64,000 nucleotides of DNA, from contig WAMF01000001.1 in NCBI GenBank assembly GCA_015522475.1, positions 100,054-164,053 of the forward strand, written 5' to 3'. The DNA comes from Microcaldota archaeon (GTDB lineage: Archaea; Micrarchaeota; Micrarchaeia; Anstonellales; J096). This document shows, one piece after another, positions 29,413 to 56,588 of this stretch. The notes under the pieces are model-generated. The model did not search any database and was not told the origin of the DNA. It was given only the letters and a program-made list of their open reading frames with translations. How positions within the stretch are numbered: the stretch's first letter is position 1; each line of letters starts with the position of its first letter. The position numbers and the translations under genes were made by a program.

Positions 29413-30270
29413 GTGGATGAAGCTATCTATGGAAGAGTAAGGGAAAGCCTAAAATTTCTGCCAAAATACGTACGTGTCAACACCTTGGCAATACAACCAG
29501 AAGCATTTTTGGAAATCTTCCCATATGCACTAGAAAAAACGGCCTTGCCCTTTATGTTTCGTCTAAGAGAAAAGAGCAAGCATGTGAAAATAGGTGCAAC
29601 GCCCGAATTTAAGGCTGGCCTTATACATGCACAAAGTCTTTCATCTGCTCTTGTGCCTCTCGCCTTTTCAGCCTTTTCAGAAAAAGATGTTATTTTAGAC
29701 GTGGCTGCAGCCCCTGGCAGCAAGACAAGCGAGATGGCCATGCTTATGAAAAATCGTGGCCTTATTGTAGCGAACGACAGGAAAGAAAGAGAAAAGGTTA
29801 TAATAGGCACGCTTTCACGTCTGGGTGTTGTAAACACAGTCATAACGCATCATGATGGCAAACGCTTGCCGAGCGAATGGAAAGGTAAGTTCACAAAGGT
29901 TTTGCTGGATGCACCCTGTTCTGCATTGGGAAGTTGGCTCAATGCATGGGAGCGCTTTGAGAGAGCTCCTCAAATCCCAAAGCGGTTGAGTAACGTGCAG
30001 AAAAAGCTTATCCTCTCGGCGTTCGACGCGCTTAAGCCGGGTGGCGAGCTCATATATTCGACGTGCACAATAACGCCAGAAGAAAACGAAGCGGTTGTCG
30101 ACCATCTTTTACAGAATAGGCCAGAGGCAAAGCTGCTTAAGGTTGAGCTGCCCATGCCTTTCGAGCGCGGCCTTTCTGAATACGAGAGCTCAGCTCACGT
30201 AGCGCGCATATACCCCTGGCATGTAAACAGCGAAGCCTTTTTCATAGCTAAGATAACAAGGAAAAAGTAA
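29413..30270 (+). CDS. NSUN/RsmB-family RNA (cytosine-C5)-methyltransferase, copy 1
   Basis: DVAAAPGSKTSEMA, LLDAPCSALGSW, YSTCTITPEENE. Confidence 0.93.
   Translation: MDEAIYGRVRESLKFLPKYVRVNTLAIQPEAFLEIFPYALEKTALPFMFRLREKSKHVKIGATPEFKAGLIHAQSLSSALVPLAFSAFSEKDVILDVAAAPGSKTSEMAMLMKNRGLIVANDRKEREKVIIGTLSRLGVVNTVITHHDGKRLPSEWKGKFTKVLLDAPCSALGSWLNAWERFERAPQIPKRLSNVQKKLILSAFDALKPGGELIYSTCTITPEENEAVVDHLLQNRPEAKLLKVELPMPFERGLSEYESSAHVARIYPWHVNSEAFFIAKITRKK
30008..30257 (+). repeat. 250-bp inverted near-identical repeat, copy 1 (partner 54342..54591)
   Basis: By-eye alignment to reverse complement of 54342..54591: about 9 mismatches, no gaps. Confidence 0.93.
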
Positions 30271-30460
30271 AGGTAAAGAGTAGCTTATCCTCTCTACTCT
30301 CATCACACAGTTACCCTCTTAGCTAAGTTGAGGGGCTTATCCAGGTTCTTATATAGTTAGCGATACACTCTTTGGTTGTTTCTTCAAGGCGAGTGCATAT
30401 GAAGACTTACATAGGCGTAAAGTATAACTTTAAAAGCTCTTCTCCCAGTAACCTTTAGTT

Positions 30461-30610
30461 ATGGCACGCATGAAGCCGAGAGATCTTTTTTATAGGGGAA
30501 GCTCTGCTGAGGTTAGAATAGAGAAGTACACATTTAGGAAAGTTCCTAGGATAGTTGCAACGGTTCAACTGCATCGAGATGGTAAGAGAGTTGCTCATAA
30601 TAAGATATGA
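30461..30610 (+). CDS. 49-aa small ORF, possible remnant of a Bud32-type kinase N-lobe
   Basis: CTTTAAAAG ~29 bp upstream; MARMKPRDLFYRGSSAEVRIEKYTFRKVPRI… resembles the YxGAEAxI start of Bud32. Confidence 0.35.
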   Translation: MARMKPRDLFYRGSSAEVRIEKYTFRKVPRIVATVQLHRDGKRVAHNKI

Positions 30611-30782: not shown

Positions 30783-30855
30783 GCCTCCGTAGCTCAGCGG
30801 TTAGAGCGGCCGCCTTGTAAGCGGCAGGTCGGGGGTTCGAATCCCTCCGGGGGCT
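30783..30855 (+). tRNA. tRNA-Thr (anticodon TGT)
   Basis: Acceptor gcctccg/cgggggc, anticodon arm gccgc-ctTGTaa-gcggc, GGTTCGAAT. Confidence 0.95.
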
Positions 30856-30971: not shown

Positions 30972-31784
30972 ATGGGTTGGCTTGACAGCATAAAAAATAA
31001 AGTCCGTAGCGCGATGAAAAAGGTGAGAGATAGAAGAAATGAAATAAAAGAAAACAAAGTAATTCTTCACAGATTGCCACATAGTCGATTAAAGAAAATT
31101 GCTAAAGATTATGGAATATCAACTAAAGGAAGTTGTCTTGAAGTGAAACATAAAAGAGTTTACAATGCTTTTTTAGGAGAATATGTAGAAAACCCAACAT
31201 ATTATACGAAAGAAGTGGAACTCAGTTATGAAGATTTAATCGATAGATTAGCAAAGAAATTAAGTAAGGAACAAATGGACGAAATAAAAAAGAAGTTAGG
31301 TATATTTAAGCCTATAATTAGAAGGAATGAGGATAGAGATACAATAGACGAGGTTCACCACAGATCGGAAAGAAGAAAAAATGAAAATGAGACCATAATC
31401 GATAGGCTCATCAGAGAAGTTCAGAACTATTACCCAACAAAAGTGGCAAAGAAGGAGGAGACATATGAAGAAGGATTATATCAATGGTTATTGGCTCGTT
31501 TTGGTTTTACTAAGGCAGAAGCTATGAGGCAATACCAATCCTTCGATATAGGTATCCCCTATGTAGGAGTAGTTATTGAGGTTAAACATAAGATGAACAA
31601 GTCGGATAGAGATAGACTTTTAGGACAGATTATAGATGGAAAGGCTAAAGGATATTATGTTATTGTTGCAATTTACAATACAAGGAACAAAAATATACTC
31701 AATGAACTGGTTGAAAGGTTGAATAAGTTAAATATTAAAGGTATTGTAATAATTGATGATAGTAAAGTCATCTACAAGGCTTGA
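30972..31784 (+). CDS. Putative PD-(D/E)XK nuclease with SAP-like N-terminal region
   Basis: EEGLYQWLLARFG … QSFDIGIPYVGVVIEVKHK … LLGQIIDGKAKG (E, D-x(n)-ExK, Q pattern); AT-rich. Confidence 0.6.
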   Translation: MGWLDSIKNKVRSAMKKVRDRRNEIKENKVILHRLPHSRLKKIAKDYGISTKGSCLEVKHKRVYNAFLGEYVENPTYYTKEVELSYEDLIDRLAKKLSKEQMDEIKKKLGIFKPIIRRNEDRDTIDEVHHRSERRKNENETIIDRLIREVQNYYPTKVAKKEETYEEGLYQWLLARFGFTKAEAMRQYQSFDIGIPYVGVVIEVKHKMNKSDRDRLLGQIIDGKAKGYYVIVAIYNTRNKNILNELVERLNKLNIKGIVIIDDSKVIYKA

Positions 31785-36640: not shown

Positions 36641-37570
36641 ATGGTAAGCCGTCAACTCCCCCCAAAAGTAGACGCTCTTATTAGAGATATAAAAGAGGTT
36701 AAAATACAAGGCGCTAGAAACGTAGCAAAGGCCGCGCTCGAAGCTGTGCAAGAGTCTATTTCTTCATTTAAAGGTAGTGCCGATGAGCTGAAGTCCCTTC
36801 TAAGTGTCGTCATATTTCGCCTTATGAATGCTAGGCCCACGGAGCCTATGACGAGAGATTTGTTAACTAATTTGCTCCAGCACCTTTTAGCTTACTCAAA
36901 CCTTAACAACGTAGACAAAATGAAGAAAGCCATAATGCAGGACTTAGAAGAGCATCTAGAGAAAATGGAAGCTAGCTTAGCAGTCATAGCAGATATTGGT
37001 GCTAATCTCATAGAAAACGGCAGTGTTGTCATGACTATATGTCATTCTTCTACAGTGACTACACTGCTCAAAAAAGCACATGACAGAGGTAAGCTAGACG
37101 AAGTTATAAGTTGCGAGACTCGGCCCCTCTTCCAAGGTCGCATAACAGCAAAAGAGCTAGCAGATCATGGGATAAGAGTGAAAAGCATCGTCGATGGAGC
37201 CATGGCACATTACATGGACGAGGCAGACATTGTAATTGTGGGGGCAGACGCCATACAAGCTGACGGCTCATTCGTGAATAAAATAGGCACGAGGGCTTTA
37301 GCCATAGTTGCAAAGGAACACAACGCGCCTTTTTATTCGGCGGCAGAGCTTTTCAAATATGACGCACAATCCATCTTTGGCTTTAGAGAAAGAATAGAGA
37401 TGCGCGATCCGGCAGAAGTATGGCCAGAGGCCCCAAAACATGTGAGAGTCCTTAATCCAGCATTTGACCTCATAGAAGCAAGATACCTCACAGCCTATAT
37501 AACTGAAAGAGGCATTGTCACACCTCAAAGCCTTCCGCTTATATTCAAAGAAGCATATTCCTCTGTATAG
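36641..37570 (+). CDS. Ribose-1,5-bisphosphate isomerase / eIF2B-alpha family
   Basis: CHSSTVTTLLKKA, ETRPLFQGR, VGADAIQADGSFVNKIGTRALA. Confidence 0.88.
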   Translation: MVSRQLPPKVDALIRDIKEVKIQGARNVAKAALEAVQESISSFKGSADELKSLLSVVIFRLMNARPTEPMTRDLLTNLLQHLLAYSNLNNVDKMKKAIMQDLEEHLEKMEASLAVIADIGANLIENGSVVMTICHSSTVTTLLKKAHDRGKLDEVISCETRPLFQGRITAKELADHGIRVKSIVDGAMAHYMDEADIVIVGADAIQADGSFVNKIGTRALAIVAKEHNAPFYSAAELFKYDAQSIFGFRERIEMRDPAEVWPEAPKHVRVLNPAFDLIEARYLTAYITERGIVTPQSLPLIFKEAYSSV

Positions 37571-37713
37571 TAGCTTGGCTTGAGCCCAGTTTGAATATGG
37601 CTAACTAGCTTACTTTTGACCTTCGCTTTTTTATGCCAGCATTCTTCTTCTCTTTCGGCTTATCAATTCACATCCATCTCTTCTACCTCTCTAGCTCCAT
37701 ACAATTGTATAAC

Positions 37714-39075
37714 CTAACCCTTTGCTATGCCTCTCGCCTTACTATATTTGTAAAGAGCATAGAGGGCTTGAACACCTTTCTCAGGGTAGGGGTAAGAGGG
37801 GATGCCGCTCATCGTAAGCATTTGCCTTAGTCGCGCTTCGACCTCTCCTCCAGGAACAACAACTGCTATGGGTTTGCTGCCTAAGAAAGACGTAAGCTCT
37901 TCTACAACCGCGGAATTTATTGCTGGCGGTTGGAAAAGAATATTAACGAGAACCATATCTATGTTAGGATCCTTGAGCATGGCCCTAAGCACTTCTCTAT
38001 AGCGAGAGACATCTGCATCTGCTACAACATCGAAGGGGTTTGCCGGTGTAACATATTCGGGAATCTTGCCCTTTATCTCATCAAGGGTCTGCTTGGATAA
38101 AGAAGGCATTTCTAAACCTAGCTTCATAGCCGCGTCCGTAGCCATGACACCGAAGCCTCCGCCGTTTGTTATAATACCTAAGCGCTTGCCTTTTGGTAAT
38201 GGCTGATTGAAGATTTTTGCCATATCAAACATATCTTCTAAGCTATAAGCCTCGAGGACACCTGCTTTTTTGAATGCCGCCTTATAGGCTAGATAGTCGC
38301 CCGCTAGAGCGCCAGTGTGTGTAGTAGCAGCTTTCTTTGCTTTGCCTTCCTTTCCCGCTTTTAGTACAATGACGGGCTTTTTACTGGCTGCATATGTAAG
38401 GGCGGATGTGAATTTTCTACCATCTCCGACGCCTTCGACATACATGAGGATAATCTTTGCTTCATTCATAGCGCCGTACGCCTTAATCAAGTCACTCTCA
38501 TCTATATTATATGCATTGCCATAAGAAACGAAGCTGTGCATGCCCAAACCATTCTTAGAGGCAAGCGAAAGGAATGCGCTGCCGACACCACCACTTTGGC
38601 TTATTATAGCTATATCACCATAAGGAGGTCTTTCGAGCTTGTAGTGAGGGAAGAAAAGCGTGTCAAAGCGCGACTTCGCCGAATAGATGCCCAAACAGTT
38701 GGGCCCTATTACATGCATGCCTTCTGCGGCCTTTTTGAAAGCTTCTTCTAAATCCTTACGCCCACTCTCACCGAAGCCTCCACTTATAACGACGGCGTGC
38801 TTTATTCCCTTCTTTTTCGCCTCCTCTAATATGGAAGGAACGGTAGGAGCAGGTGTCGCTATAACTGCCACATCAACAACTTCAGGAAGGGCGCTCAAAG
38901 AGGGGTAGCAAGGATGGCCAAGCACTTCTTTATGCTTAGGGTTCACAGCGTACACATCTCCGTTAAACCCACCCTTTATAATGTTAAGAAAGATTACGGC
39001 CCCGATTTTTGCAGGATTGCTAGAAACACCAACTACTGCAATAGATTTTGGATTCAAGAACTTGTTCATGTTCAT
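37714..39075 (-). CDS. ADP-forming acetyl-CoA synthetase alpha subunit
   Basis: CoA-binding LNPKSIAVVGVSSNPAKIG, IGPNCLGIYS, SQSGGVGSAFL, TTHTGALAG. Confidence 0.93.
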   Translation of the reverse strand: MNMNKFLNPKSIAVVGVSSNPAKIGAVIFLNIIKGGFNGDVYAVNPKHKEVLGHPCYPSLSALPEVVDVAVIATPAPTVPSILEEAKKKGIKHAVVISGGFGESGRKDLEEAFKKAAEGMHVIGPNCLGIYSAKSRFDTLFFPHYKLERPPYGDIAIISQSGGVGSAFLSLASKNGLGMHSFVSYGNAYNIDESDLIKAYGAMNEAKIILMYVEGVGDGRKFTSALTYAASKKPVIVLKAGKEGKAKKAATTHTGALAGDYLAYKAAFKKAGVLEAYSLEDMFDMAKIFNQPLPKGKRLGIITNGGGFGVMATDAAMKLGLEMPSLSKQTLDEIKGKIPEYVTPANPFDVVADADVSRYREVLRAMLKDPNIDMVLVNILFQPPAINSAVVEELTSFLGSKPIAVVVPGGEVEARLRQMLTMSGIPSYPYPEKGVQALYALYKYSKARGIAKG

Positions 39076-39086
39076 AAGCTCACCCC

Positions 39087-39737
39087 CTACTTCTTGCCCT
39101 TTAAAGATTTTGAGGGCTCTTCTTCCCGAGCCGCGCTTTGAGCTCCAGTGACTCGTGCATCTATAATATAAAGATGCTTGGCATCCACTTTCATGGGATT
39201 TATATCGAGCTCCTTTGCCCTCACGTGCTCAGCAAATTCACAGATTTTAGGCAATGTCTTGCGGAGGAGCGCTAAGTTGACCTGCTTTCCCCTATAGCCG
39301 AGCAGAATCTTTTTTGCCTTTAGATCGTGAATCATACTGTCAACATCTTTCTCTGTTATAGGGCAGATTCTGGCGGAGATGTCCCTAAACACTTCTACAT
39401 ATACGCCACCTAAACCGAAGAGAATGATTCTTCCGAAAGATGGGTCGTCCTCTATACCTACGTACAGCTCAATGCCTTTCTTTATTTGTTTCTGGACTAG
39501 CAGAGCCTCACCTTTGAAGTGTCTTTGAAAATAGTCCCACGTGCTCTTTAGCATGGTCTCGTTGTAATTGTCTAAGACAACACCTCCGACATCTGTCTTG
39601 TGCACAGTGTCACTCGCCAATTTTACGACTACAGGATAACCGAGCTCTTTTGCAGCAGCCCTCGCCTCCTCCCATGTTTTTACAATTCTAAAAGGCGCTA
39701 CTGAAAGGCCAAACTTTTCAAGCTTATCTAAAATCAT
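39087..39737 (-). CDS. ADP-forming acetyl-CoA synthetase beta subunit
   Basis: ATP-grasp: YPVVVKLASDTVHKTDVGGV, FGLGGVYVEVFRD. Confidence 0.93.
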   Translation of the reverse strand: MILDKLEKFGLSVAPFRIVKTWEEARAAAKELGYPVVVKLASDTVHKTDVGGVVLDNYNETMLKSTWDYFQRHFKGEALLVQKQIKKGIELYVGIEDDPSFGRIILFGLGGVYVEVFRDISARICPITEKDVDSMIHDLKAKKILLGYRGKQVNLALLRKTLPKICEFAEHVRAKELDINPMKVDAKHLYIIDARVTGAQSAAREEEPSKSLKGKK

Positions 39738-39892
39738 GCTCCTGAATGGAGCAGGAGTTTTTAAAAGATGCGCGTTTCACACGCGTCGAACAGATGTCAA
39801 GGACGACTAAGTTGAGGATAATTTTGTGGTGTATGGTGGCGGGTTGTAGGTTTGCTCACAATTTATAAAGTTTTACACACTAAATTGGGCAC

Positions 39893-40303
39893 ATGAGTAA
39901 GACTCTTACCTTAGTGGAAAACGACAGAGTGGGCCTTCTCATGGACATAAGTTACATAATGGGAAAGGCAAAGATAAACATAGAGAACATCTCAGCCGTT
40001 AGCGTCGGTGGAAAGGCAGTTATAACCATGACAGTAAAGGATCCAAGAAAAGCGACAGAAGTATTGAAAACCAATGGGTTCAATGTGCTGGAAGAAGATA
40101 CACTTATGATAAAGCTGCCAGACAAGCCAGGGGAGCTCTCCAAGGTTACAAAAGAGTTGGCAAAGAACGGCGTTAACATAACCTCTTTATACGTCGTTAG
40201 CAGAGATGGCAAGGAAACAGTCATAGCCCTAACTGTAGACAAGAAAAGAAAGGGTAGAAAGCTCCTAGAGCCTTACATTATAGAGAACGCATCCATTATA
40301 TGA
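39893..40303 (+). CDS. Tandem ACT-domain protein
   Basis: NDRVGLLMDISYIMGKAKINIENIS and DKPGELSKVTKELAKNGVNITSLY. Confidence 0.85.
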   Translation: MSKTLTLVENDRVGLLMDISYIMGKAKINIENISAVSVGGKAVITMTVKDPRKATEVLKTNGFNVLEEDTLMIKLPDKPGELSKVTKELAKNGVNITSLYVVSRDGKETVIALTVDKKRKGRKLLEPYIIENASII

Positions 40304-40371
40304 TGTGTATCTACAAGGGTTACCCACATGTAGCAATTTAATTTCTATCTTTCCTTTTTATCCTATTTATC

Positions 40372-41505
40372 TTATTCTTGTTCCTTAACTTTTCTAAGCA
40401 GCACTTTCTTATTCTTCTCATCCAAGCCTTGAATGGAGTAAGTTGTGCCGTCCAAAGATAAGAGGAATCCAGCAGGTTTTTCCCCTTCTGTCTTACCCTT
40501 TTTTTCCAACCACTTTCTCAAGCTCTCTAAGAATGTATCCACAGCAGAGGCGCTTTGAAAAAGGAGTTGACCTATGTGCTTGTAAAGCGCTGCTTTTTCT
40601 TCGTATTCGGAGATTTTGCTCTTCTGTATTTCAACAATGCGTCTTTGTTTTTCTATAGCGTCTTTTGACTCCGATGGTGTAGGCAAGTTAAGCTCAACCT
40701 CGGCAAGCGCGGCGCTTAAAGACGGCATATCCTTTGCAGCAGAGGGCCTCTCGTCGAAATAAAGACCGTAATCATGCTTATCTGCTGTGAGGTAAGGTTT
40801 TGCCCTAGCTAAAAGCTCTTCTATTTCTGCCTCAATTTGGCCGATCCTGTCTACGAAGGCACCACTTGCCTGCCTTTCCTCAAAACCAAGCTTTTTCAGC
40901 ATGACATCTTTATACTTTTTGCCCACAAGCTTGACGAGCACAGCCCCTAACGGCTTCTCTGCATAGGTCTCAAACAACTGCCGGACATCGTTTATGTTTT
41001 CCGCATGTATGGGCTTGCCGCTTTCAAACAGCGCCTTTTTATACTTAGTCACAGCTTCTTCTTTTTCTCTTGCCTCCCCTGCTTTCCCATTATGATTTGC
41101 AGACGCTTCTCTATCTGTCTCGAAGAGGGCCACACTGCCTTTGCCATACATGTCAAACCAAAGTGCATAACCCGAAAAGAGCAGCTCCAATACTCTGTCA
41201 CCTTCTAAAAGGCTTATGCGCTCTAGTCTGTGGTTTCTTAGCTCTTTTCTGAGCTTCTCACTTACTTTGTCTTCTTTGTAGGTAGAAAATGCAGAAGGCA
41301 TGTGTTCGCCAATGGCTTCTTTGTTGGTTTGGCTAGCGTCCATAAAAAAGGCATATTGGCCTCTGTTTACAAAGAGGAAGAGCTGACCAAACTTGAATTT
41401 GAGCGTGCCGTTCTTAAGCGTGTAAACCTTGTCAAGGCGCTTACCTTCTAAATGTTTGAGCTCTTGTATAAGGTAGAGAAGCTCTAATCTTTCAATTACG
41501 TGCAT
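40372..41505 (-). CDS. NFACT/Rqc2 (FbpA-like) protein lacking the C-terminal NFACT-R region
   Basis: NFACT-N-like N-terminus and central coiled coil; stops soon after; start set to MHVIERLELL by TATA spacing. Confidence 0.7.
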   Translation of the reverse strand: MHVIERLELLYLIQELKHLEGKRLDKVYTLKNGTLKFKFGQLFLFVNRGQYAFFMDASQTNKEAIGEHMPSAFSTYKEDKVSEKLRKELRNHRLERISLLEGDRVLELLFSGYALWFDMYGKGSVALFETDREASANHNGKAGEAREKEEAVTKYKKALFESGKPIHAENINDVRQLFETYAEKPLGAVLVKLVGKKYKDVMLKKLGFEERQASGAFVDRIGQIEAEIEELLARAKPYLTADKHDYGLYFDERPSAAKDMPSLSAALAEVELNLPTPSESKDAIEKQRRIVEIQKSKISEYEEKAALYKHIGQLLFQSASAVDTFLESLRKWLEKKGKTEGEKPAGFLLSLDGTTYSIQGLDEKNKKVLLRKVKEQE

Positions 41506-41525
41506 GATGATATGTTGGCATAAAG

Positions 41526-41533
41526 TTATATAA
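41526..41533. promoter_or_regulatory. Palindromic TATA-like box TTATATAA shared by divergent NFACT and cca genes
   Basis: Centre 24.5 bp from ATG at 41505 (-) and 27.5 bp from ATG at 41557 (+). Confidence 0.65.
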
Positions 41534-41556
41534 TGCCTTACTCTTAACATTTAGTT

Positions 41557-42978
41557 ATGGCAAGTGGAAACACCAAGAAGGTCCAGCAGGAAGAGTTTCA
41601 AAAAGACTTTGATACTCTCGAGAAAGCAGTGTTAAAACGCATTAAGCCATCTCCTGAAGAGGATAAGGCCCTTATGGCTTTTTACGAAGAGCTTAGAGGA
41701 CAGCTCAAGGATTTGGGCGCAGTTGAGCTCATGGGCTCCGCTGCTAAAGGGACACGGCTTGCAAGCAAGAAGGAGATAGATTTATTTGTGCTTATTCCGC
41801 CGAGCGCTGAAGCAAAGGGCACACTCAAAGCTGTAGTCGATAAAATTGCTAAGAGGATGAAGGAAGCAGGGTATAAAACGCTCATTTCATATGCCGAGCA
41901 CCCCTATGTTCGTATTGAAAAGGCAGGTATGGAAGCAGATATTGTGCCCTCATTTAAAATGGAAGGCTTTCGCATATCTCAACTCATCTCAGCCGTCGAT
42001 AGAACACAATTCCACGTGCGTTACGTAAACAAACATATGAAGGATGAGCAAAGAGACGAAGTCCGTCTATTGAAACAGTTTCTTAGGAATTTTTCTTTAT
42101 ATGGGGCAGAGGTGCGCGTTGGAGGCTTTTCCGGCTATCTCTGCGAGCTTCTCGTGTTAAAGCTCGGCTCATTCAGAGAAACGCTCAGATTTTTCGCAAA
42201 TGCCTCGCCACCCATAAGACTAGCTATGACGACAAAGGAGCTCAAATACGCTCAAAACTTTGAGCCGCGCAAAGGGCAAAAAGAGCAGCAAGCGGTTGAA
42301 GGAAGAGGAACTAAAACAACTCCAAATTTATCCCCACCTTTCATATTCGTAGATCCTGTGGACCACAATAGGAATGTGGCCTCGCCTGTAAGAGCAGAGA
42401 CGCTTTCCAAGCTCATTCTAGCGGCGCGTTCCTACATAAAAAGACCTTCGATGGAACACTTCTTTTTTGAAGAGGAAGAAAGTTTAGAGAGCTCCTCCAT
42501 AAGTATTTCATTCAAAGCAGCCAGCTTACATGACGACGTGAAGTTTGGCATGCTTCGCAGAATAGGTAAAAAGCTCTCTACATTTCTCGAGGCCTTAGAA
42601 TTCGATGTGCTAGAGCAAGCTGTCTTTAACGAAGAGGAAAAAGACATTATATGGCTAGCCTTGGACAGCGACGTTGTAAAGCCCGCCGGTGCCCAAAGAG
42701 GTCCGCCCATCTCAGCCAAAGCAGCTATGCAGGCCTTTTTGAAGAAGCACACGTCATTTTATATAGATAAAGAAGGTAGGATATGGACAAGGAAGGCAAA
42801 GCCCTGCTCAGACGCGCTAAGCTGCACACAACTGTTCTTTAAAAGGGAAAGTGGAAGCATAAAGCCCCCCTATAAAAAGCCGGTTGCTATTGAGCTTGAC
42901 AGAGAATGGCATGCAGTGAAAAGAGAAAAGGCTTTAAAATCCTTTATACGGAATATATTAGCTGAAACCGACAAATAG
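41557..42978 (+). CDS. cca: Archaeal CCA-adding enzyme
   Basis: GSAAKGTRLASKKEIDLFVLIP, HPYVRIEKAGMEADIVPSF, VGGFSGYLCELLVLKLGSF. Confidence 0.92.
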   Translation: MASGNTKKVQQEEFQKDFDTLEKAVLKRIKPSPEEDKALMAFYEELRGQLKDLGAVELMGSAAKGTRLASKKEIDLFVLIPPSAEAKGTLKAVVDKIAKRMKEAGYKTLISYAEHPYVRIEKAGMEADIVPSFKMEGFRISQLISAVDRTQFHVRYVNKHMKDEQRDEVRLLKQFLRNFSLYGAEVRVGGFSGYLCELLVLKLGSFRETLRFFANASPPIRLAMTTKELKYAQNFEPRKGQKEQQAVEGRGTKTTPNLSPPFIFVDPVDHNRNVASPVRAETLSKLILAARSYIKRPSMEHFFFEEEESLESSSISISFKAASLHDDVKFGMLRRIGKKLSTFLEALEFDVLEQAVFNEEEKDIIWLALDSDVVKPAGAQRGPPISAKAAMQAFLKKHTSFYIDKEGRIWTRKAKPCSDALSCTQLFFKRESGSIKPPYKKPVAIELDREWHAVKREKALKSFIRNILAETDK

Positions 42979-45518
<2,540 letters not shown>

Positions 45519-45736
45519 GAGTAGAATGCAGGCTGAGAGGTAAAGGAAGAGAGCTCCAGCTCAGCAATAAGCTGGAAGATTAGTGTGCGGTTGAGTAATG
45601 ATATATAGGTATAAGTGGTATATAGATGAGTATGACGGAAGTTAGCGAGGTTAACTATAAGATGTTAACCCAAATGTAAGGACCGAGTATATAAAATTGA
45701 AAATGAGAAGAAAATGGGAAAATAGAAGGGATACAT

Positions 45737-46285
45737 ATGCATTTCTATAAGGGCGAAATCGAGGACATAAGCATAGCTGCTTTTTTTCTGTCACTAGCCT
45801 TTAGCATAGCTGTCAACGGTCTCACAGTTAACGCGTTGAGATGGTTTCCTATAGCTTTTCTATTAGTAGTGCCGGCCTTTGTGTTTCACGAGCTCATGCA
45901 TAAATCATTAGCTCAATGGCTAGGAAAACCCGCGCGTTTTATGATGTTTAAATGGGGAATTGCTTTGGCACTTCTTCTTAGCCCTCTCGGTTTTGTCTTC
46001 GCTGCGCCCGGAGCTGTTTTTATATTTTCAGCCGGCCTTTCGCCCGTGGAGAGCTTGCTTGTTTCTTCTGCTGGCCCTTTAATGAACATAACGTTGGCAG
46101 CTTTGGCCCTGCCTTTTGCAAAAACACCTCTTGGCAGCGCCTTTATACAAATAAACGCATTTCTCTCGTTGTTTAATCTCTTGCCATTTGGTCCTCTGGA
46201 TGGTTATAAAATCTTTCGTGCCCATAAGGGGGTATGGACACTTCTTGCCCTGAGCTCTTTGGGTCTTCTACTAGCGGCGTTCTGA
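45737..46285 (+). CDS. Site-2-protease (M50)-like metalloprotease
   Basis: VFHELMHK and LLPFGPLDGYKI. Confidence 0.85.
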   Translation: MHFYKGEIEDISIAAFFLSLAFSIAVNGLTVNALRWFPIAFLLVVPAFVFHELMHKSLAQWLGKPARFMMFKWGIALALLLSPLGFVFAAPGAVFIFSAGLSPVESLLVSSAGPLMNITLAALALPFAKTPLGSAFIQINAFLSLFNLLPFGPLDGYKIFRAHKGVWTLLALSSLGLLLAAF

Positions 46286-46905
46286 GCAGTTTGCAAGCAA
46301 AGAAGGAGGAGCGCAACGAAAGAAGTGGGGAAGAGCGGTTCCCAAAGGTGTACAAAGGGGCAGAAGCGTTCGTCTACATCTTTGAGGATTTTGTCGTAAA
46401 AGAAAGACGGCGAAAAGCCTACCGCCTAAAAACATTCGATGAAGCCATACGTAAAAGACGGACGCGGCTTGAGGCAAAGATGTTAAAAAGAGCTGAAAAG
46501 GAGGGGATAGCTGCACCCCATATTATAAAGACAAGTGAGTTTTGCATAAAGATGACGCGTATTCTGGGCAAACACATAAAGCCTAACAAAGTGTGGGCAG
46601 AACGGGCAGCTCATCTTCTTAAAAAGTTGCATTCTGCTTCGATTATACACGACGATTTCACACCCGCTAATCTAATAGCGACGGAAGAAAACAAAGGAAG
46701 TGGGAAAGCTCTGCCATCTCTATTTATTATAGATTTTGGTTTGGCTTTTGTCTCTCAGCGTATAGAGGACAAAGCATCAGATCTGTTTACCGCAGCCCAA
46801 TCCTTTAAGCCTTATGAAGGAGTGTTTGTCAGGGCTTACAACGACGAAGTAGTTGAAGAACGTTATAAGGCTATACGCAAGCGCATGCGTTATGTAAAAG
46901 ACTAA
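46234..46905 (+). CDS. bud32: Bud32 (KEOPS kinase); true start probably 46291 (TTG) or 46348 (GTG)
   Basis: YKGAEAFVYIFEDFVVKERRRKAYR, LHSASIIHDDFTPANLI, FIIDFGLAF, DKASDL. Confidence 0.88.
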   Translation: MDTSCPELFGSSTSGVLSSLQAKKEERNERSGEERFPKVYKGAEAFVYIFEDFVVKERRRKAYRLKTFDEAIRKRRTRLEAKMLKRAEKEGIAAPHIIKTSEFCIKMTRILGKHIKPNKVWAERAAHLLKKLHSASIIHDDFTPANLIATEENKGSGKALPSLFIIDFGLAFVSQRIEDKASDLFTAAQSFKPYEGVFVRAYNDEVVEERYKAIRKRMRYVKD

Positions 46906-46953
46906 AGAAGATATAGAGAAAGTGAGAGAGTAAAGGAGCACTCTGAGCAAGGT

Positions 46954-48102
46954 TTAAGTAAGCCAATCCGTAAGCTTTCTCTGCTTTAATATGACGCTTT
47001 TCTTTATGTAAGCTTTTAAGGGAAGCTCAATGAGACGTTCAAGCTGTTTAAGCATCGCTTGCTTTGAATCGGCTTTGGCAACCGCGCCTTTCTTTAATGC
47101 TTCTCTAACCCCTTCCCTAACCTGCCACACTCCGACAGGAACCGCATAGTCTGGTGAGATCTCGCGTATACACAGGGCAGCGGCTTGTCTACGACGTTGC
47201 TTAGCCAGGAACTCGCTTACAGCAAACTTCACTGCATAGTAAGCTCCTGCTTGGCTCTCAGCATACTGCCACCGACCTTTATTCGGTTCCCATTCTACAC
47301 TCACTCTATAATGGTTGGAGGTATTGCAGCCTCTTTTCGGGGGCCAGCTCTCTATGTTCTCGAATTGCCATGCCTCTGGAAGAAGCACACATATATACCT
47401 GTTGTGTAGATGCTCATAGTAGTAGAGCTCATATTCGTCAAGAGTAGGGAGGTCTCTAAGCATGTCTACGTTTTTGTTAGCTAACAGAGAATCAACAGCA
47501 GTTATGGCCTGCCTCGTCGGCACAAGCCTTTTTTCCACACCAAAGATGCCGACAGAAAATGTGCGTTGAAGGTAGTAGGGGTCATATGCCCTATCATAGA
47601 GCTCATATAGAGCAACTCTTGCCTTTATTCTTTCGTTAGCTAAGCTATCGACCTTTCGCGGAATTTTTGGGTTGTCGAAGAGCTGGAGAGATTTAAGTGG
47701 AGCCCGAGGACCAAAGGGCAATGTGTATGGCGAGAGGTCTACTGCAGCTTTCACAGCTCTACTAAAAACTGCTCCTGTCTCAACGGGTTTCGTCGACATA
47801 GCAAGCTCTTTAACCTCTTCTGAAAAGTAGCCATAATTCATGCCAAAAAGAGTTGTAAGCCTTTCTTTTATTATGCCCAGATAACTCTTCTTTTTAAGCT
47901 CCTCCACTGCTAAGCTACCGAATGCTACTGCAGAGTTTAGGCCTGCTGAAACAAATACCTCTCTTGTGGGTGCTTCAACTTCCTTTACTTCTTCTACAGC
48001 CCTTAATTGGGCAGCACGCTGCCTGAAGTATTGATAAAGCAATGTGCGCGCGTTGTTAAGCCACGCCTTGTGAAGCCGGTCCTCTCGCGTTGCTTTTGGC
48101 AC
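46954..48102 (-). CDS. Nre-family (NreA/NreB-like) DNA-repair-associated protein
   Basis: AYYAVKFAVSEFLAKQRRRQAAALCIREISPDYAVPVGVWQVREGVREALKK; C-terminal QRKLTDWL PIP-like motif. Confidence 0.75.
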   Translation of the reverse strand: MPKATREDRLHKAWLNNARTLLYQYFRQRAAQLRAVEEVKEVEAPTREVFVSAGLNSAVAFGSLAVEELKKKSYLGIIKERLTTLFGMNYGYFSEEVKELAMSTKPVETGAVFSRAVKAAVDLSPYTLPFGPRAPLKSLQLFDNPKIPRKVDSLANERIKARVALYELYDRAYDPYYLQRTFSVGIFGVEKRLVPTRQAITAVDSLLANKNVDMLRDLPTLDEYELYYYEHLHNRYICVLLPEAWQFENIESWPPKRGCNTSNHYRVSVEWEPNKGRWQYAESQAGAYYAVKFAVSEFLAKQRRRQAAALCIREISPDYAVPVGVWQVREGVREALKKGAVAKADSKQAMLKQLERLIELPLKAYIKKSVILKQRKLTDWLT

Positions 48103-48108
48103 AACCTA

Positions 48109-49206
48109 TTATGGAAGCCTCAATTTAAAAATAAGGATTGCAAAGAGGCTTATAAGCGCTTCAAAACCTATGAGCACATTCACAAGCGTCTTCTCATCTA
48201 TGCCTCCAGCTAACTTCATCACAGCTTGGGGTAAGCTTAAAACAACACCTTTTGAACCTCCAGGAGGATAGAGCCTTCCATCTCTCAATTCACCCCACCA
48301 CCCAGCCTTTCCATTGACTTCAGGAAGTGTAAGGAGCATGCCTTTTTTGAGCTTCTCCCATGAGGAATCCATAGGATTGTGAAGAAGTTTTATAGCCAAA
48401 TCTAATAGGTGAGGGATGAGTAAGATAATGGCTAAGCTCTCAAAGTTGTCTACAATAACTAAAGCAGAGAGGAGTCCTCCGATGATGAGTGTGCCTGCAT
48501 CGCCCGGAAAGATTTTTGAGGGATATTTGTTAAGCAAGAAAAAGCCCAGAAACGCCGCTAAGGCAATACTTCCGATCACGGTCATATGAGGTCTTCCATA
48601 CATGGCGCCCAATAAGGCCACAGTTATGAACATGGGGATGGAAATACCGTATTCTAAGCCATTGAAACCCGCTAGTATATTTGTTAAGTTGGCTGAGACA
48701 GTTATAGCAAAAGGCACTATAATTAGGAAATAAAAGATGCCAAAGTTTACGGAGCCTATGAAGGGAATAAACACTGCAGTGTTGCCTGCAGCCCTCAACA
48801 CGATTAAAGGAATAGCTCCAAATATGGGTAAGAGGAGCTTCCATAATTGAGGCATATCTATTAAATCGTCAACCATACCTATAAAGCCCAGAACAAATAA
48901 CAAGAGCAAAATTGAAGAAGTCATGAGAGGACTTATGCCCAAATTATATATGCCAAAGAACTGAACAAATATAGCTACAGCAATGCCCAAATATATAGCC
49001 AATATGACGGCAATGCCCCCCATTTCAGGTACTGCCGGCTTTGCTTTTTTATTCATGTCCTTGCCGACGATTCCTGCCTTTTTGAGCTTAGGTATGAGAA
49101 GAAGTGTGCCAAAGTAAGATGCAAAAAATACGAAAAGTGTAAGCACAGCCTCAAAGAGAATATTCGCAAGAGAATTGGACCCCATGTTTAGTGCAAGATT
49201 AGACAT
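48109..49206 (-). CDS. Polyprenyl-phosphate GlcNAc-1-P transferase (GT4, MraY/WecA/DPAGT1-like)
   Basis: KPAVPEMGGIAV, NLTNILAGFNGLEYGI, FPGDAGTLIIGG; about ten TMs. Confidence 0.88.
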   Translation of the reverse strand: MSNLALNMGSNSLANILFEAVLTLFVFFASYFGTLLLIPKLKKAGIVGKDMNKKAKPAVPEMGGIAVILAIYLGIAVAIFVQFFGIYNLGISPLMTSSILLLLFVLGFIGMVDDLIDMPQLWKLLLPIFGAIPLIVLRAAGNTAVFIPFIGSVNFGIFYFLIIVPFAITVSANLTNILAGFNGLEYGISIPMFITVALLGAMYGRPHMTVIGSIALAAFLGFFLLNKYPSKIFPGDAGTLIIGGLLSALVIVDNFESLAIILLIPHLLDLAIKLLHNPMDSSWEKLKKGMLLTLPEVNGKAGWWGELRDGRLYPPGGSKGVVLSLPQAVMKLAGGIDEKTLVNVLIGFEALISLFAILIFKLRLP

Positions 49207-49411
49207 GCTTATACCCCCTTATGCTTCCAATGTCTTAATTTCTTTTCTTACTTAATTTCTCCATTCTCCAACATCTCAAGTATCTATCATACTATCAGCA
49301 ATCCAACCAGTTTATCAGTTGTTTATTAGCTAATTAGCTATCTACTTATACTATCCTCTCACTATCTACGTATCTACTCATCCATTACCTATTTAGCTCG
49401 TTACCTCATCC

Positions 49412-49933
49412 TTATCGCGTTCTTACGTCATCTATAAAAGCTAAAAAGCTGTCGCTTATCTTAAGCAGGTAGTTTGCGAATGTCTTGCTAAGCTCTATCT
49501 CCATAGGCATATGTTTTTTATTTTTGCCCTCTTCTGTCGCGCGTTTTAGGCGTATCATGCCTACGCGTTTAAGTCGAGGAAGGACGCGATTATAAAGTGT
49601 GGCCTTTGAAAAGCCCTTTTCTTTTATGAGTTGTCCTATATCTTTTCCTTCTAACCTGCCTTTGTTGGCAGCTAGTGCCTGCATGAGAGCTACAGATATT
49701 TTATAGTATGTCTCCTGATACTTAGGTGGAAACACAAACTTGAGCACTTCCTCTATCTTCCATACGTTGCGTGTCGGCTTGCCTTCGTCGTCTTCAAACT
49801 TCCTTACCTCTTCGCTGTAAAAAGCAGGAAGCCACATAGCCTCCTTGCTAGGTATGCCCCTGCTCATGGGCTGTTTATTCTTTTGCCCTTCTTTTTCATA
49901 GGCGTTTTCAGCCCTGTTTTCCGTCGTGCTCAT
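49412..49933 (-). CDS. Winged-helix transcriptional regulator-like protein
   Basis: DIGQLIKEKGFSKATLYNRVLPRLKRVGMIRLKR. Confidence 0.6.
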   Translation of the reverse strand: MSTTENRAENAYEKEGQKNKQPMSRGIPSKEAMWLPAFYSEEVRKFEDDEGKPTRNVWKIEEVLKFVFPPKYQETYYKISVALMQALAANKGRLEGKDIGQLIKEKGFSKATLYNRVLPRLKRVGMIRLKRATEEGKNKKHMPMEIELSKTFANYLLKISDSFLAFIDDVRTR

Positions 49934-49969
49934 ATCTTACCCCCATCTTTCTCGAGAAGAATAGACTGT

Positions 49970-50284
49970 TTATCCAAAGATATCGCCTATACCTTTGGCT
50001 GCTGCATTCTCTTCTTCTTCAACGGCCGATTTCACTTTCTCTGCCTCCTCTCCCTCAAGGAGCTCTGCTACGTCTGCTAGGCGCGCTTTTGCCTTTTCCA
50101 AGAATGCTGCGTTTTCCGAACGTATATACAAATAATAGCCTTCCTTTGCCATGCCTAGGCTCTTTCCTTCTCTCAACTTGTAGCCAACACGAGCAAAGCT
50201 ATTCTCTTCATACGGGTTCTCTTCGAGAACCTTCTTCGCTGCCTTGTAGCTTTCGGGCTTTATATAGAATACAATTACTCCCAT
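49970..50284 (-). CDS. Conserved-looking small protein, unknown
   Basis: MGVIVFYIKPESYKAAKK…; TTTATATA ~25 nt upstream of this ATG. Confidence 0.55.
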   Translation of the reverse strand: MGVIVFYIKPESYKAAKKVLEENPYEENSFARVGYKLREGKSLGMAKEGYYLYIRSENAAFLEKAKARLADVAELLEGEEAEKVKSAVEEEENAAAKGIGDIFG

Positions 50285-50367
50285 GATGTGGTGAGAGGGG
50301 AAATGTATATAAAGATGTGGCATGATTAGAGATTAAGAGGGGGTAAGGTACGTAGAGGTAGCTGTGA

Positions 50368-51378: not shown

Positions 51379-51423
51379 GCTGGCAGCGGCTGTACCTTGC
51401 CCATTTTAAAAGCTTTGTATTAA

Positions 51424-52329: not shown

Positions 52330-52442
52330 AGGGGAATTGGAAGGCAAAGGCAACTTTAAAGCTAATTGCCAGTATAAATCTCTAGGTTACATACGCCAGA
52401 ATATGATGCGCTAGAACCTGTAGAGAAATTAAGGGAGAGAAT

Positions 52443-54281
52443 ATGTGCGGCATAGCTGGATTTGTGGGCGAGCTTGCATTAAAGAGGGTGCTTAGAGCCT
52501 TGCTTTTAATGGAGTATAGAGGTTATGACTCAGTTGGAGTGGGGGTGAAGCTAGATTTAGAGGGCAGTGGCAGCGGCTTCAAGGTGCTCAAAACCTTAGG
52601 GGCGCCTTCTGAGCATATTAACATAGATAAGCTGGCATTCAACGGCGAGCAATTGGGTGAAGAAGGAAAAGTAAAGCTAGCTATTGGACACACACGTTGG
52701 GCGACGCACGGCGGCGTTTCTGAAAAGAATGCCCACCCCTTTATACAAGGCCATGTTATGCTTGTCCACAACGGCGTGACAAAAAACTTTCTTCAGCTTA
52801 AAGAGAAGCTTCTAGATAAGGACCGCATATTCACATCTGAGACAGACTCAGAAGTTCTAGCTGCGCTTATAGACGAGGCCGCTGGAAACATCGCCAGTGG
52901 AGAGAAAAAAGACGAAGGAAGCGAAGAAGGGAGAAGCAAGAGAAGATTGAAGGCCATAAAAGAAGCGCTCGAGGAAGTTAAAGGTGATTATGCGCTTGTA
53001 TTTATGTTTGACGACGAAGGCAAGCTTTACTTTGCAGTAAAGGGACAACCCCTTCTACTTTCCAAAGAACTGCGCGGCCTTGCTTCAGACCCTGCGGCGT
53101 TTGCTGGCGAAAAAGCAAGCTATGCACCTCTGCCTTCTGGAACTATTGGATGGCTTTCAGAAGATAAAGTAGAATTCTTAGGGGCGCCGAAGCTCACATT
53201 TATTTCCGCTCCGTCGTTGGAAGAAGTAGGAAAAGGACGCTTTCCTTACTTTATGCGAAAAGAAATCGAAGAACAGGCGACGCTGTTCAAGCGCGCGCTT
53301 GATGCAAATATAAAGGCAGCAAAGGAATTGATTGAGGCTGCTCCGGCCATATTTATCGTTGCTGCGGGCACAAGCTACAATGCAGCGCGCCTTCTTCAGC
53401 ACTTGCTTTATAAGAAGACGTTTGAAGAAGAACATTGGAAACCTATAATTTTGAAGTATGGCCATGAATTCTATCCTAAAGAGTGGAAGCATATAGATAA
53501 AGCCCTAGTAGTGGCGCTCAGTCAAAGCGGAGAGACACTCGACGTAATAAGTCCGCTTGAAGAGACAAACGCACCCATATTGGCCATAGTGAATAGGCTA
53601 GGTTCGACGTTGGCGAGGCTCGCTTCTGTCGTCGTTCCTATAGGCGCAGAGTCTGAAATAGGTGTTGCAGCTACGAAAAGTTTTCTCAACCAGCTCATTC
53701 TATCTTATAGATTAGCGGGCCATGAATTAGATGGAGAGCAAATACAAAAAGCTGTAAAAGGGGCTTTGTCTTTGGAAGAGCATGCCGCCAACTTATCTGA
53801 GAAGATTGTCAACGCCGCCAAGAGAAGCGGGCATATATTTGTTCTAGGCAAAGCAGAGATGAAATACATAGCCGCTGAATTGAAGCTCAAGATGCAAGAG
53901 GTTGCTTATTTAAGCATGGAGTTTTTGCCTACGGGCGAGCTTAAGCATGGACCCCTTGCTGCAGTAAGTGAAGGCACTGTTGTGGTTGTGCTTGTGCCCG
54001 AAGGTGAGAAAGGTAGAGATGCTTTAGGGGAAGCAGTTAAAGCGTTGGGCAGAGGTGCATATGTGTTCTTAGCTTATCCTTCTTCTCTAGAAGAAGATGT
54101 GGCAGACTTGAAGAAGAACTATGGTCAAAGATTGGAGGTCGTGCGCTTCTCAGATACGATGCCATACCTCCTCTTTTCATATACTGTATTTGCGCAACTT
54201 CTAGCTTACCACGCGGCTCTTCACTTGGGCAAGAACCCGGATAAGCCACGCAACTTAGCTAAGAGCGTAACCGTGCGCTGA
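52443..54281 (+). CDS. glmS: Glutamine-fructose-6-phosphate aminotransferase
   Basis: MCGIAGFVG N-terminal Cys, GHTRWATHGGVSEKNAHP, AAGTSYNAA, ALSQSGETLD, C-terminal KPRNLAKSVTV. Confidence 0.97.
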   Translation: MCGIAGFVGELALKRVLRALLLMEYRGYDSVGVGVKLDLEGSGSGFKVLKTLGAPSEHINIDKLAFNGEQLGEEGKVKLAIGHTRWATHGGVSEKNAHPFIQGHVMLVHNGVTKNFLQLKEKLLDKDRIFTSETDSEVLAALIDEAAGNIASGEKKDEGSEEGRSKRRLKAIKEALEEVKGDYALVFMFDDEGKLYFAVKGQPLLLSKELRGLASDPAAFAGEKASYAPLPSGTIGWLSEDKVEFLGAPKLTFISAPSLEEVGKGRFPYFMRKEIEEQATLFKRALDANIKAAKELIEAAPAIFIVAAGTSYNAARLLQHLLYKKTFEEEHWKPIILKYGHEFYPKEWKHIDKALVVALSQSGETLDVISPLEETNAPILAIVNRLGSTLARLASVVVPIGAESEIGVAATKSFLNQLILSYRLAGHELDGEQIQKAVKGALSLEEHAANLSEKIVNAAKRSGHIFVLGKAEMKYIAAELKLKMQEVAYLSMEFLPTGELKHGPLAAVSEGTVVVVLVPEGEKGRDALGEAVKALGRGAYVFLAYPSSLEEDVADLKKNYGQRLEVVRFSDTMPYLLFSYTVFAQLLAYHAALHLGKNPDKPRNLAKSVTVR

Positions 54282-54328
54282 GATAGTAGGGGCTCGCGCT
54301 TTCTGTGCTCTTTCTGTGCTTATTGTCC

Positions 54329-55294
54329 CTAACTTTCCTTCGTTATTTTAGCTATGAAAAAGGCTTCGCTGTTCACATGCCACGGGTATATGCGCGCTAC
54401 GTGAGCTGAGCTCTCGTATTCAGAAAGGCCGCGCTCGAAGGACACGGGCAGCTCAATTTTAAGGAGCTTTGCCTCTGGCCTATTCTGTAAAAGATGGTCG
54501 ACAACCGCTTCGTTTTCTTCTGGCGTTATTGTGCACGTCGAATATATGAGCTCGCCACCCGGCTTAAGCGCGTCGAACGCCGAGAGGATAATACGCCGCT
54601 GAACGCGCGCCATGTCTCTTATCCTATGCCTATTTGTTTTCTTCCATGCATACACAGAAGAGCCAAGAGAGGAGCAAGGCACATCAGCCAACACATGTGT
54701 AAAGAGTTGAGAAGAGGAGAAGACACGCGCATCTCCTCTGTACACGGCTACTGAAGTAACACCAAGCCTATCGAGATTAGAAACAAGAAGAGAAAGCCTA
54801 TCTATGCGCTTATCCACAGCGACAATGGGCACTCGGTTGAATGTAAGCTGTGCCAGCTGGGAGGTTTTACTGCCAGGAGCAGCAGCTATATCCAATATGC
54901 GCATCTCCTCCGCTGATCCACAACAAGGCAGTCGAAGATTAAAGGCTGCTGGGGGTAACATAGATGAGAATGCTTGAGGATGAATCCAGCCCATAAAATA
55001 CTCCATCGTCTTCCCTATTTTTTTCACACTAGTTTTTTCCATGCTGGCTTCCTCGTCCGCTACTTTGTTTGAGCCGAGATATTCAAATGCATATGGAAGG
55101 GCTGTCTGCCTTAAAGCAAGCCCACTCTCTTCGAAGAAACGGCCGAGAGAAACTTTAAGAGTGTTTATACGCACGTACGTTCGCCGATTAAGAATGGGTT
55201 TAACAAAGCCGTCTATGTCTATGGACAACTCTTCTAAAAGTCCGCGGACATAGGGACTAAATGTATAAGGAGCGCTCAGACATCTCACCCACAA
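54329..55294 (-). CDS. NSUN/RsmB-family RNA (cytosine-C5)-methyltransferase, copy 2
   Basis: DIAAAPGSKTSQLA, LADVPCSSLGSS, YSTCTITPEENE. Confidence 0.93.
   Translation of the reverse strand: MWVRCLSAPYTFSPYVRGLLEELSIDIDGFVKPILNRRTYVRINTLKVSLGRFFEESGLALRQTALPYAFEYLGSNKVADEEASMEKTSVKKIGKTMEYFMGWIHPQAFSSMLPPAAFNLRLPCCGSAEEMRILDIAAAPGSKTSQLAQLTFNRVPIVAVDKRIDRLSLLVSNLDRLGVTSVAVYRGDARVFSSSQLFTHVLADVPCSSLGSSVYAWKKTNRHRIRDMARVQRRIILSAFDALKPGGELIYSTCTITPEENEAVVDHLLQNRPEAKLLKIELPVSFERGLSEYESSAHVARIYPWHVNSEAFFIAKITKES
54342..54591 (-). repeat. 250-bp inverted near-identical repeat, copy 2 (partner 30008..30257)
   Basis: See 30008..30257. Confidence 0.93.
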
Positions 55295-56588
55295 GGTTGG
55301 TATTCATGAGCCTGTCAAGCTCTTCTCGGCTAGACGCGTGTTTAATGGCCCAGCTAAGCTTAACATAAGCTGTCTCTGGCAACATGTCATTGAAGTTGCC
55401 CCTAACACCAAGAGAGAGGAGTTCCCTGCCGGAAGAGTAAACATTCATATTAACTCTGCCACCCAACGTCTGCGTTGTCATGTAAACATATACACCATCA
55501 TCGATAAGGTCCTTAAGCGCAGATTTGAGCTTACTAACAGCCAAATGGCCCAAACCTGTGCCAGCGAGCACGAGGCCTTTGTAACCCTTATACGCCTCTA
55601 GCACCTCGGGCTTCATGCCGGGATAAACATAGAGTAGCGCCACATCCCTATCAAAGCCATTTCTCAGCTCAAGCCGGCCAAGCCCGCCCTTCTTAAGCCC
55701 AGAAAACACTGACGCAGATTTAGCATTAGCACCGTCAGGAATGGTTGAGCCTGCTGAAGGTGATGAAGAAGAGAGCTCAAGCGGCTCGAATAGACCCGTA
55801 TAAAAAACCCTTGCCAGAGGCTTGCCATTAACTGTTTGGAAGGCATCTCTTCTGCTCGAGTGCATCTTTCTTACGCGCGTGCCTCTATGCATATGACAAA
55901 GGCCATCCGACGAACCAGCATGCATGCACACGACGACCTCACCAAAATCCTGCTCTGCAGCAAAGATGCTGTTTAATAGGTTGTCCTCGTTATCGCTGCT
56001 TGGCCTATCTGAGCTGCGCTGAGCCCCAGTAAGCACGATGGGCCTATCTGTGCCTACAGCAAACGAGAGAGCTGAAGCTGTGTAGGCAAGCGTGTCCGTC
56101 CCATGAAGAATTACGACGCCTCTAGCCCCATAAGAAAGCAGCCTATACGCCTCGTCTGCTATGAGCTCCCAATGAGCGGGCTCCATTTCTTCACTGAATA
56201 TAGAAAGAGGATTCTCAACGGCAATATCCGCTATAGATGAAAGCTTTGGGAAGCTGCTCAACAACTCATCTGCCGAAATGGAAGGATAAACGGCCCCTGT
56301 CTTATAGTCGATTTTTGAGGCTATGGTGCCTCCGCAACCTACAATGACAACCTTGCCTTTCACTTCATCTTTCGACAACTGCACCTTCTCTTCTGCGTGT
56401 GCCTCTTCAGCCACTTGTTTAATCGGCAGTTCCGCCTTTCCCTCTATTATCTCGACTTCATTCTTGGCAAGGCCTATGTTGTAGCCGCTCTTCAGTTTTA
56501 GGACAAGTGTTTTATCGTCGGGAGATGGCAAGAGCAAACCCTCCAGTACCTTGCCTTTCCATTTTAAGCGAACATGTTTCAATTCCAT
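55257..56588 (-). CDS. gatD: Glutamyl-tRNA(Gln) amidotransferase subunit D
   Basis: VGCGGTIASKID, LHGTDTLAYTASALSF, TGAQRSSDRPSSDNEDNL, TQTLGGRVNMNVYSSGR. Confidence 0.95.
   Translation of the reverse strand: MELKHVRLKWKGKVLEGLLLPSPDDKTLVLKLKSGYNIGLAKNEVEIIEGKAELPIKQVAEEAHAEEKVQLSKDEVKGKVVIVGCGGTIASKIDYKTGAVYPSISADELLSSFPKLSSIADIAVENPLSIFSEEMEPAHWELIADEAYRLLSYGARGVVILHGTDTLAYTASALSFAVGTDRPIVLTGAQRSSDRPSSDNEDNLLNSIFAAEQDFGEVVVCMHAGSSDGLCHMHRGTRVRKMHSSRRDAFQTVNGKPLARVFYTGLFEPLELSSSSPSAGSTIPDGANAKSASVFSGLKKGGLGRLELRNGFDRDVALLYVYPGMKPEVLEAYKGYKGLVLAGTGLGHLAVSKLKSALKDLIDDGVYVYMTTQTLGGRVNMNVYSSGRELLSLGVRGNFNDMLPETAYVKLSWAIKHASSREELDRLMNTNLVGEMSERSLYI

What the first reader, a model, noticed from the sequence alone, without database searches (positions are those of the whole stretch)
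30008..30257. 250-bp gene-conversion tract between two NSUN methyltransferases
The 3' ends of the genes at 29413 (+) and 54329 (-) are about 96% identical over 250 bp in inverted orientation (about 9 mismatches by eye). Sequence upstream diverges abruptly, and the proteins' N-terminal two-thirds are clearly different. That mosaic implies recent ectopic conversion rather than simple duplication. The repeat could also mediate inversion of the intervening 24 kb.
Basis: seen in the sequence. Interest (0 to 1): 0.62.

Follow-up and report, generated by a model that had tools for sequence, protein, structure and literature searches.

The report
Shared tail of two RNA methyltransferases
Two anciently separate RNA-methylating enzyme genes in a small archaeon carry nearly the same DNA for their last third because one copied that part from the other, and a sister species shows its own smaller version of the same event, so this is a clean example of a known but rarely documented kind of gene copying in this group.

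Summary
Both genes (A, 29413-30270 +; B, 54329-55294 -) are intact NOL1/NOP2/Sun-type RNA m5C methyltransferases of a Micrarchaeota-related archaeon. The N-terminal two thirds are anciently separate paralogues (A groups with the sister species' A, B with its B, both 100% support). The C-terminal third pairs A with B inside this genome. That is ectopic, segment-limited gene conversion.

Three things were added. The copied stretch runs past both stop codons to about 30350, where a decayed 16-codon remnant of the glmS 3' end lies beside A; the working glmS lies beside B, which points to B/glmS as source. The 5' half has no synonymous changes while the 3' half has several (P=0.009), suggesting a later second exchange. 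The sister genome has an independent, shorter A/B homogenised stretch at the very 3' end (P about 7e-4).

Recurrent conversion is inferred. Inversion of the 24 kb is untested.

The parts
29413..30270 (+). Gene A: NOL1/NOP2/Sun-family RNA m5C methyltransferase, 285 aa, mosaic (own N-terminal part, shared C-terminal part)
   Evidence: Pfam PF01189 8.6e-49; TIGR00446 over its cut-off; orthologue G001 C26 at 62-64%
54329..55294 (-). Gene B: paralogous NOL1/NOP2/Sun-family methyltransferase, 321 aa as called, downstream of gatD
   Evidence: Pfam PF01189 1.6e-44; orthologues G001 C18 and G002 C15, each beside gatD
30008..30134 (+). Perfectly identical 127-nt part of the shared tract in A (partner is the high-coordinate end of B's arm 54334-54591); encodes motif VI (STCT)
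30135..30265 (+). 3' part of the shared tract in A, 12 mismatches in 131 nt
54334..54591 (-). Partner arm in B, 258 nt, 95% identical to 30008-30265
30298..30350 (-). Decayed remnant of the glmS 3' end beside A (KNLDKPLNLAKRVTV*), 87% identical over 53 nt to 54231-54283
   Evidence: weak translated match to the sister genome's glmS end
52443..54281 (+). glmS, intact, convergent with B; its last 16 codons are the counterpart of the remnant
   Evidence: NF001484 over cut-off; TIGR01135 4.6e-112 but below its cut-off
55257..56588 (-). gatD, upstream neighbour of B; conserved neighbour in G001 and G002

Best explanation
A and B are two old paralogous NSUN-type RNA m5C methyltransferases whose 3' thirds have been homogenised by ectopic homologous recombination. 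Shown: the mosaic, its boundaries, the old separation of the N-terminal parts, intact reading frames across the junction, and a glmS remnant in the A copy. Inferred: a break or stalled end in A invaded B at the conserved C-terminal part of the methyltransferase fold, copied B's 3' third plus the gap and the last codons of glmS (about 343 nt), and was closed by an illegitimate join, leaving a useless glmS tail beside A. Later a second, shorter exchange re-homogenised the first 127 nt or so. Both proteins keep motif IV (PCS) and motif VI (STCT), so the swap exchanges a module that looks catalytically competent. The sister species underwent its own, shorter exchange. (Confidence 0.8 is for conversion as such; about 0.65 for B as donor.)
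For: N-domain tree: G000A+G001A 100, G000B+G001B+G002 100; C-domain tree: G000A+G000B together on short branches; AU tests. Codon identity: 42/43 and 32/37 identical synonymous choices where 15.2 and 14.2 are expected; cross-species pairs show no excess in the same motif. Longest identical run 127 nt (107 in the codon alignment used for the test) against a null maximum of 32. glmS remnant adjoining A at 87% over 53 nt, with three amino-acid changes relative to glmS and loss of the last codon. Synonymous differences 0/42 against 6/38 codons in the two halves, Fisher p 0.009. Sister genome: 35-nt run, P about 7e-4, 18/22 identical codons against 9.6 expected. RadA recombinase present in all three genus members.
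Against: The protein tree does not say which gene was donor (log-likelihood difference about 1 or less between the two placements). The end of the A copy is also a breakpoint in gene order, so a rearrangement rather than plain conversion could have produced the copy. Hjc was not found in this genome, which is about 88% complete.
Confidence: 0.8

Rival explanations
1. Inversion with staggered breaks. A once lay convergent with glmS; an inversion cut A's 3' third with staggered ends and cut inside B, so that the fragment (A's 3' third plus the glmS end) was duplicated at both ends of the inverted interval. The donor would then be A.
For: Inverted orientation of the two copies; glmS end present at both; gene order differs from relatives at the 3' ends of A (pheT in G001), B (permease in G001 and G002) and glmS; protein phylogeny allows A as donor.
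Against: The model predicts B's original 3' end right after the remnant at A; no such sequence is detectable in the contig, nor the permease in the genome, though deletion could explain both. It does not explain the separate homogenised stretch in the sister species.
Confidence: 0.2
2. Recent duplication of the whole gene followed by fast change of the N-terminal part.
For: A and B are homologous over their whole length.
Against: A and B each have their own orthologue in the sister species with the same split; upstream of the boundary the two genes share few residues and no excess of identical codons.
Confidence: 0.02
3. Strong selection on the C-terminal protein or DNA sequence keeps the two copies alike without exchange.
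For: The last 18 compared residues are identical in A and B of both species.
Against: Synonymous sites match within each genome but are at chance level between genomes, and the match runs into non-coding sequence and a non-functional glmS tail.
Confidence: 0.03
4. Assembly artefact, such as a false join at a short repeat (the 127-nt run equals a common maximum k-mer length).
For: The identical run is exactly 127 nt; the genome is a 23-contig draft.
Against: Contig ends of this assembly overlap by 57, 58, 65 and 151 nt, not 127; the two copies differ at a dozen further sites and in their flanks; both frames stay open and co-linear with orthologues.
Confidence: 0.04

Closest known systems
mtrA-1/mtrA-2 concerted evolution in methanogens (PMC4632066)
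   Same: Archaeal paralogues in which one shared domain is homogenised by recurrent gene conversion while another part stays distinct
   Different: mtrA copies sit in one operon and belong to the Mtr complex of methanogenesis; here the genes are 24 kb apart in inverted orientation, are RNA methyltransferases, and the tract carries a non-homologous neighbour's end with it
RF1/RF2 domain-3 conversion in bacteria (PMC4530459)
   Same: Independent conversions in different lineages, limited to a functionally interchangeable catalytic domain of paralogues
   Different: Different genes and domain of life; those conversions were detected by protein phylogeny across phyla, here one is recent enough to show at synonymous sites
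Archaeal NOL1/NOP2/Sun methyltransferase MJ0026 (PDB 3A4T) and TIGR00446 nop2p
   Same: Both proteins match over nearly full length (A 8e-41, B 2e-34), with PC and TC motifs
   Different: Target RNA site of A and B unknown; neither reaches the NCBIfam cut-off of any site-specific equivalog

Membership tests
Ectopic (non-allelic) gene conversion tract | Segment of two paralogues far more alike than flanking parts, with sharp boundary | tested here: met
   5' boundary at 30008, identity from about half to 100%; the 3' side fades through the stop codon and non-coding sequence
Ectopic (non-allelic) gene conversion tract | Conflicting phylogenies inside and outside the tract | tested here: met
   AU tests on N and C parts; C-part test weaker (0.014; 0.056 on the shorter part)
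Ectopic (non-allelic) gene conversion tract | One-way transfer with donor identified | tested here: inconclusive
   Protein tree does not discriminate; glmS remnant suggests B side as source
Ectopic (non-allelic) gene conversion tract | Flanking order unchanged (no crossover) | tested here: inconclusive
   Gene order downstream of A, B and glmS differs from relatives; no close enough genome
NOL1/NOP2/Sun RNA m5C methyltransferases (Methyltr_RsmB-F) | Match to family profile | tested here: met
   PF01189, both genes; TIGR00446 above cut-off for A (226.7 vs 210.45), just below for B (204.5)
NOL1/NOP2/Sun RNA m5C methyltransferases (Methyltr_RsmB-F) | Motif IV PC and motif VI TC cysteines | tested here: met
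   DAPCSALG / STCT in A, DVPCSSLG / STCT in B
NOL1/NOP2/Sun RNA m5C methyltransferases (Methyltr_RsmB-F) | Methylates cytosine C5 in RNA | not testable with these tools
   Needs an enzyme assay

The most novel reading that the evidence does not exclude
In this genus the catalytic 3' module (motif VI to the C-terminus) of two old RNA methyltransferase paralogues is exchanged again and again, independently in different species and perhaps already in their ancestor, so that two enzymes with separate N-terminal parts share one co-evolving catalytic module.
Probability: 0.5. Interest if true: 0.55.

Novelty: new member of a known kind. Interest (0 to 1): 0.4.

Why it matters
Ectopic conversion between paralogues seems to be rarely documented at DNA level in small-genome DPANN archaea; none of the papers that hold both 'gene conversion' and 'DPANN' in the held library looks to be about it by title and abstract, which is not proof of absence. 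The case is practical: it warns that C-terminal sequence alone mis-sorts these methyltransferases, and it gives a layered example (fresh exchange, older transfer, decayed neighbour tail) in which direction and mechanism can be tested with a few more genomes.

Tried and rejected
Direction from protein trees: no discrimination. Search for the original 3' end of A or B elsewhere in the 221-kb contig: none. Search for B's usual neighbour (permease) in this genome: none, and for glmS's neighbour in the sister species: found only there. DNA copies of the region downstream of A elsewhere in the genome: only the tRNA itself. k-mer artefact from contig-end overlaps: not supported. A constraint for the N part separated G001A from G000A and so is not interpretable; only its C-part result is used (AU p 0.053 for placing G001A's C part with the relatives of its N part, borderline evidence for an ancestral exchange). 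The run length for this genome is 107 because of an alignment gap; direct comparison gives 127. One sequence (G055a) was read on the wrong strand and was corrected.

Full report
Observation. The window has a single long inverted pair, 30008-30265 and 54334-54591, 258 nt, 95%. The first 127 nt are identical, then 12 differences follow in 131 nt. Upstream identity falls at once to about 25-55% per 50-nt window. It is the strongest repeat in the 221-kb contig that holds the window.

The genes. A (29413-30270 +) and B (54329-55294 -) are NOL1/NOP2/Sun RNA m5C methyltransferases, with both catalytic cysteine motifs. The window's genome is a 0.91-Mb draft; the nearest named relative is a Micrarchaeota MAG, JALWQW01, which is evidently the held same-genus genome G001 since contig numbers, lengths and positions agree. 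Only three genomes of the genus are held.

Old paralogues, young shared tail. In the N-terminal two thirds, A groups with the sister species' A and B with the sister species' B and the G002 gene, each with 100% support; in the C-terminal third, A and B of this genome group together on short branches. The N part rejects A+B as sisters (AU 4e-86); the C part rejects the orthologue arrangement (0.014; 0.056 without the last stretch). At synonymous sites the evidence is stronger: 42 of 43 and 32 of 37 codons for the same residue are identical where 15 and 14 are expected, while comparisons across species are at expectation. Resampling synonymous codons with both proteins held fixed never produced a run above 32 nt.

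Beyond the stop codons. The similarity continues, with gaps, through both stop codons into the last codons of glmS. Beside B this is the real, convergent glmS; beside A it is an orphan piece, 30298-30350 (E 1.8e-11 in the contig), reading KNLDKPLNLAKRVTV* against glmS KNPDKPRNLAKSVTVR*. The sister species' glmS end matches it too (weak). A copy of the B/glmS side pasted onto A is the simplest reading. In the sister species A is followed by pheT, and B is followed by a permease in both other genus members, so the 3' flanks of A and B both differ in this genome. The cdc48-glmS block (41557-54281) is also turned round relative to its neighbour block 36641-41550 when compared with the sister genome. 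This is why a rearrangement-linked origin, with A as donor, remains a rival.

Layers. No synonymous difference in the first 42 codons against 6 of 38 in the rest (Fisher p 0.009), with the non-functional glmS tail at 13% divergence: an older transfer of the whole stretch followed by a recent shorter exchange fits better than one event. This is an inference.

Recurrence. In the sister species A and B share a 35-nt identical run at the very 3' end (P about 7e-4) and 18 of 22 identical codons against 9.6 expected (P 2e-4), while the preceding part is at expectation. The letters of that stretch differ from the tract in this genome, and cross-species codon identity is at expectation, so the two events are separate. 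The C parts of A and B from the whole genus form one group (91-98% support by data set), while the N parts do not; tests of this deeper event are borderline. Genomes of another family with two such genes keep the two types apart in both trees.

Mechanism. RadA is present. A break in A repaired from B, starting in the conserved part of the fold and running through the gene end into glmS, followed by an illegitimate join, accounts for the sharp 5' and ragged 3' edges. Shown: mosaic, boundaries, remnant, phylogenetic conflict. Inferred: order, direction, repair route. Not tested: inversion of the 24 kb.

Artefact check. The identical run of 127 nt equals a common k-mer size (own knowledge), so contig-end overlaps were examined; they are 57, 58, 65 and 151 nt, which gives no support to that worry. 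Three contigs read as N and were not informative; the far ends of contigs 20-23 were not examined.

Known context. Segment-limited conversion between paralogues is known: mtrA in methanogens (PMC4632066) and RF1/RF2 in bacteria (PMC4530459). This is a new member of that kind, with the useful extra of a hitch-hiking neighbour fragment.

Noticed in passing
30972-31784: AT-rich (about 33% GC against about 44% nearby) 270-aa gene right after tRNA-Thr (30783-30855), no Pfam or NCBIfam match; by eye a possible PD-(D/E)XK nuclease (DIGIPYVGVVIEVKHK). Looks like a recent insertion at a tRNA.
   Followed up: partly
30461-30610: Short open frame (MARMKPRDLFYRGSSAEVRIEKYTFRKVPRI...) that by eye resembles the start of a Bud32-type kinase; possibly another gene fragment in the region downstream of A. 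No significant match in the contigs searched.
   Followed up: partly
36641-54281: Gene block cdc48 to glmS (41557-54281) is inverted relative to the block 36641-41550 when compared with the sister genome's contig G001:C3.
   Followed up: partly
L045 2326-3246 and L046 4989-5843: The sister species' own B and A genes share a nearly identical 3' end of about 66 nt, an independent homogenised stretch.
   Followed up: yes
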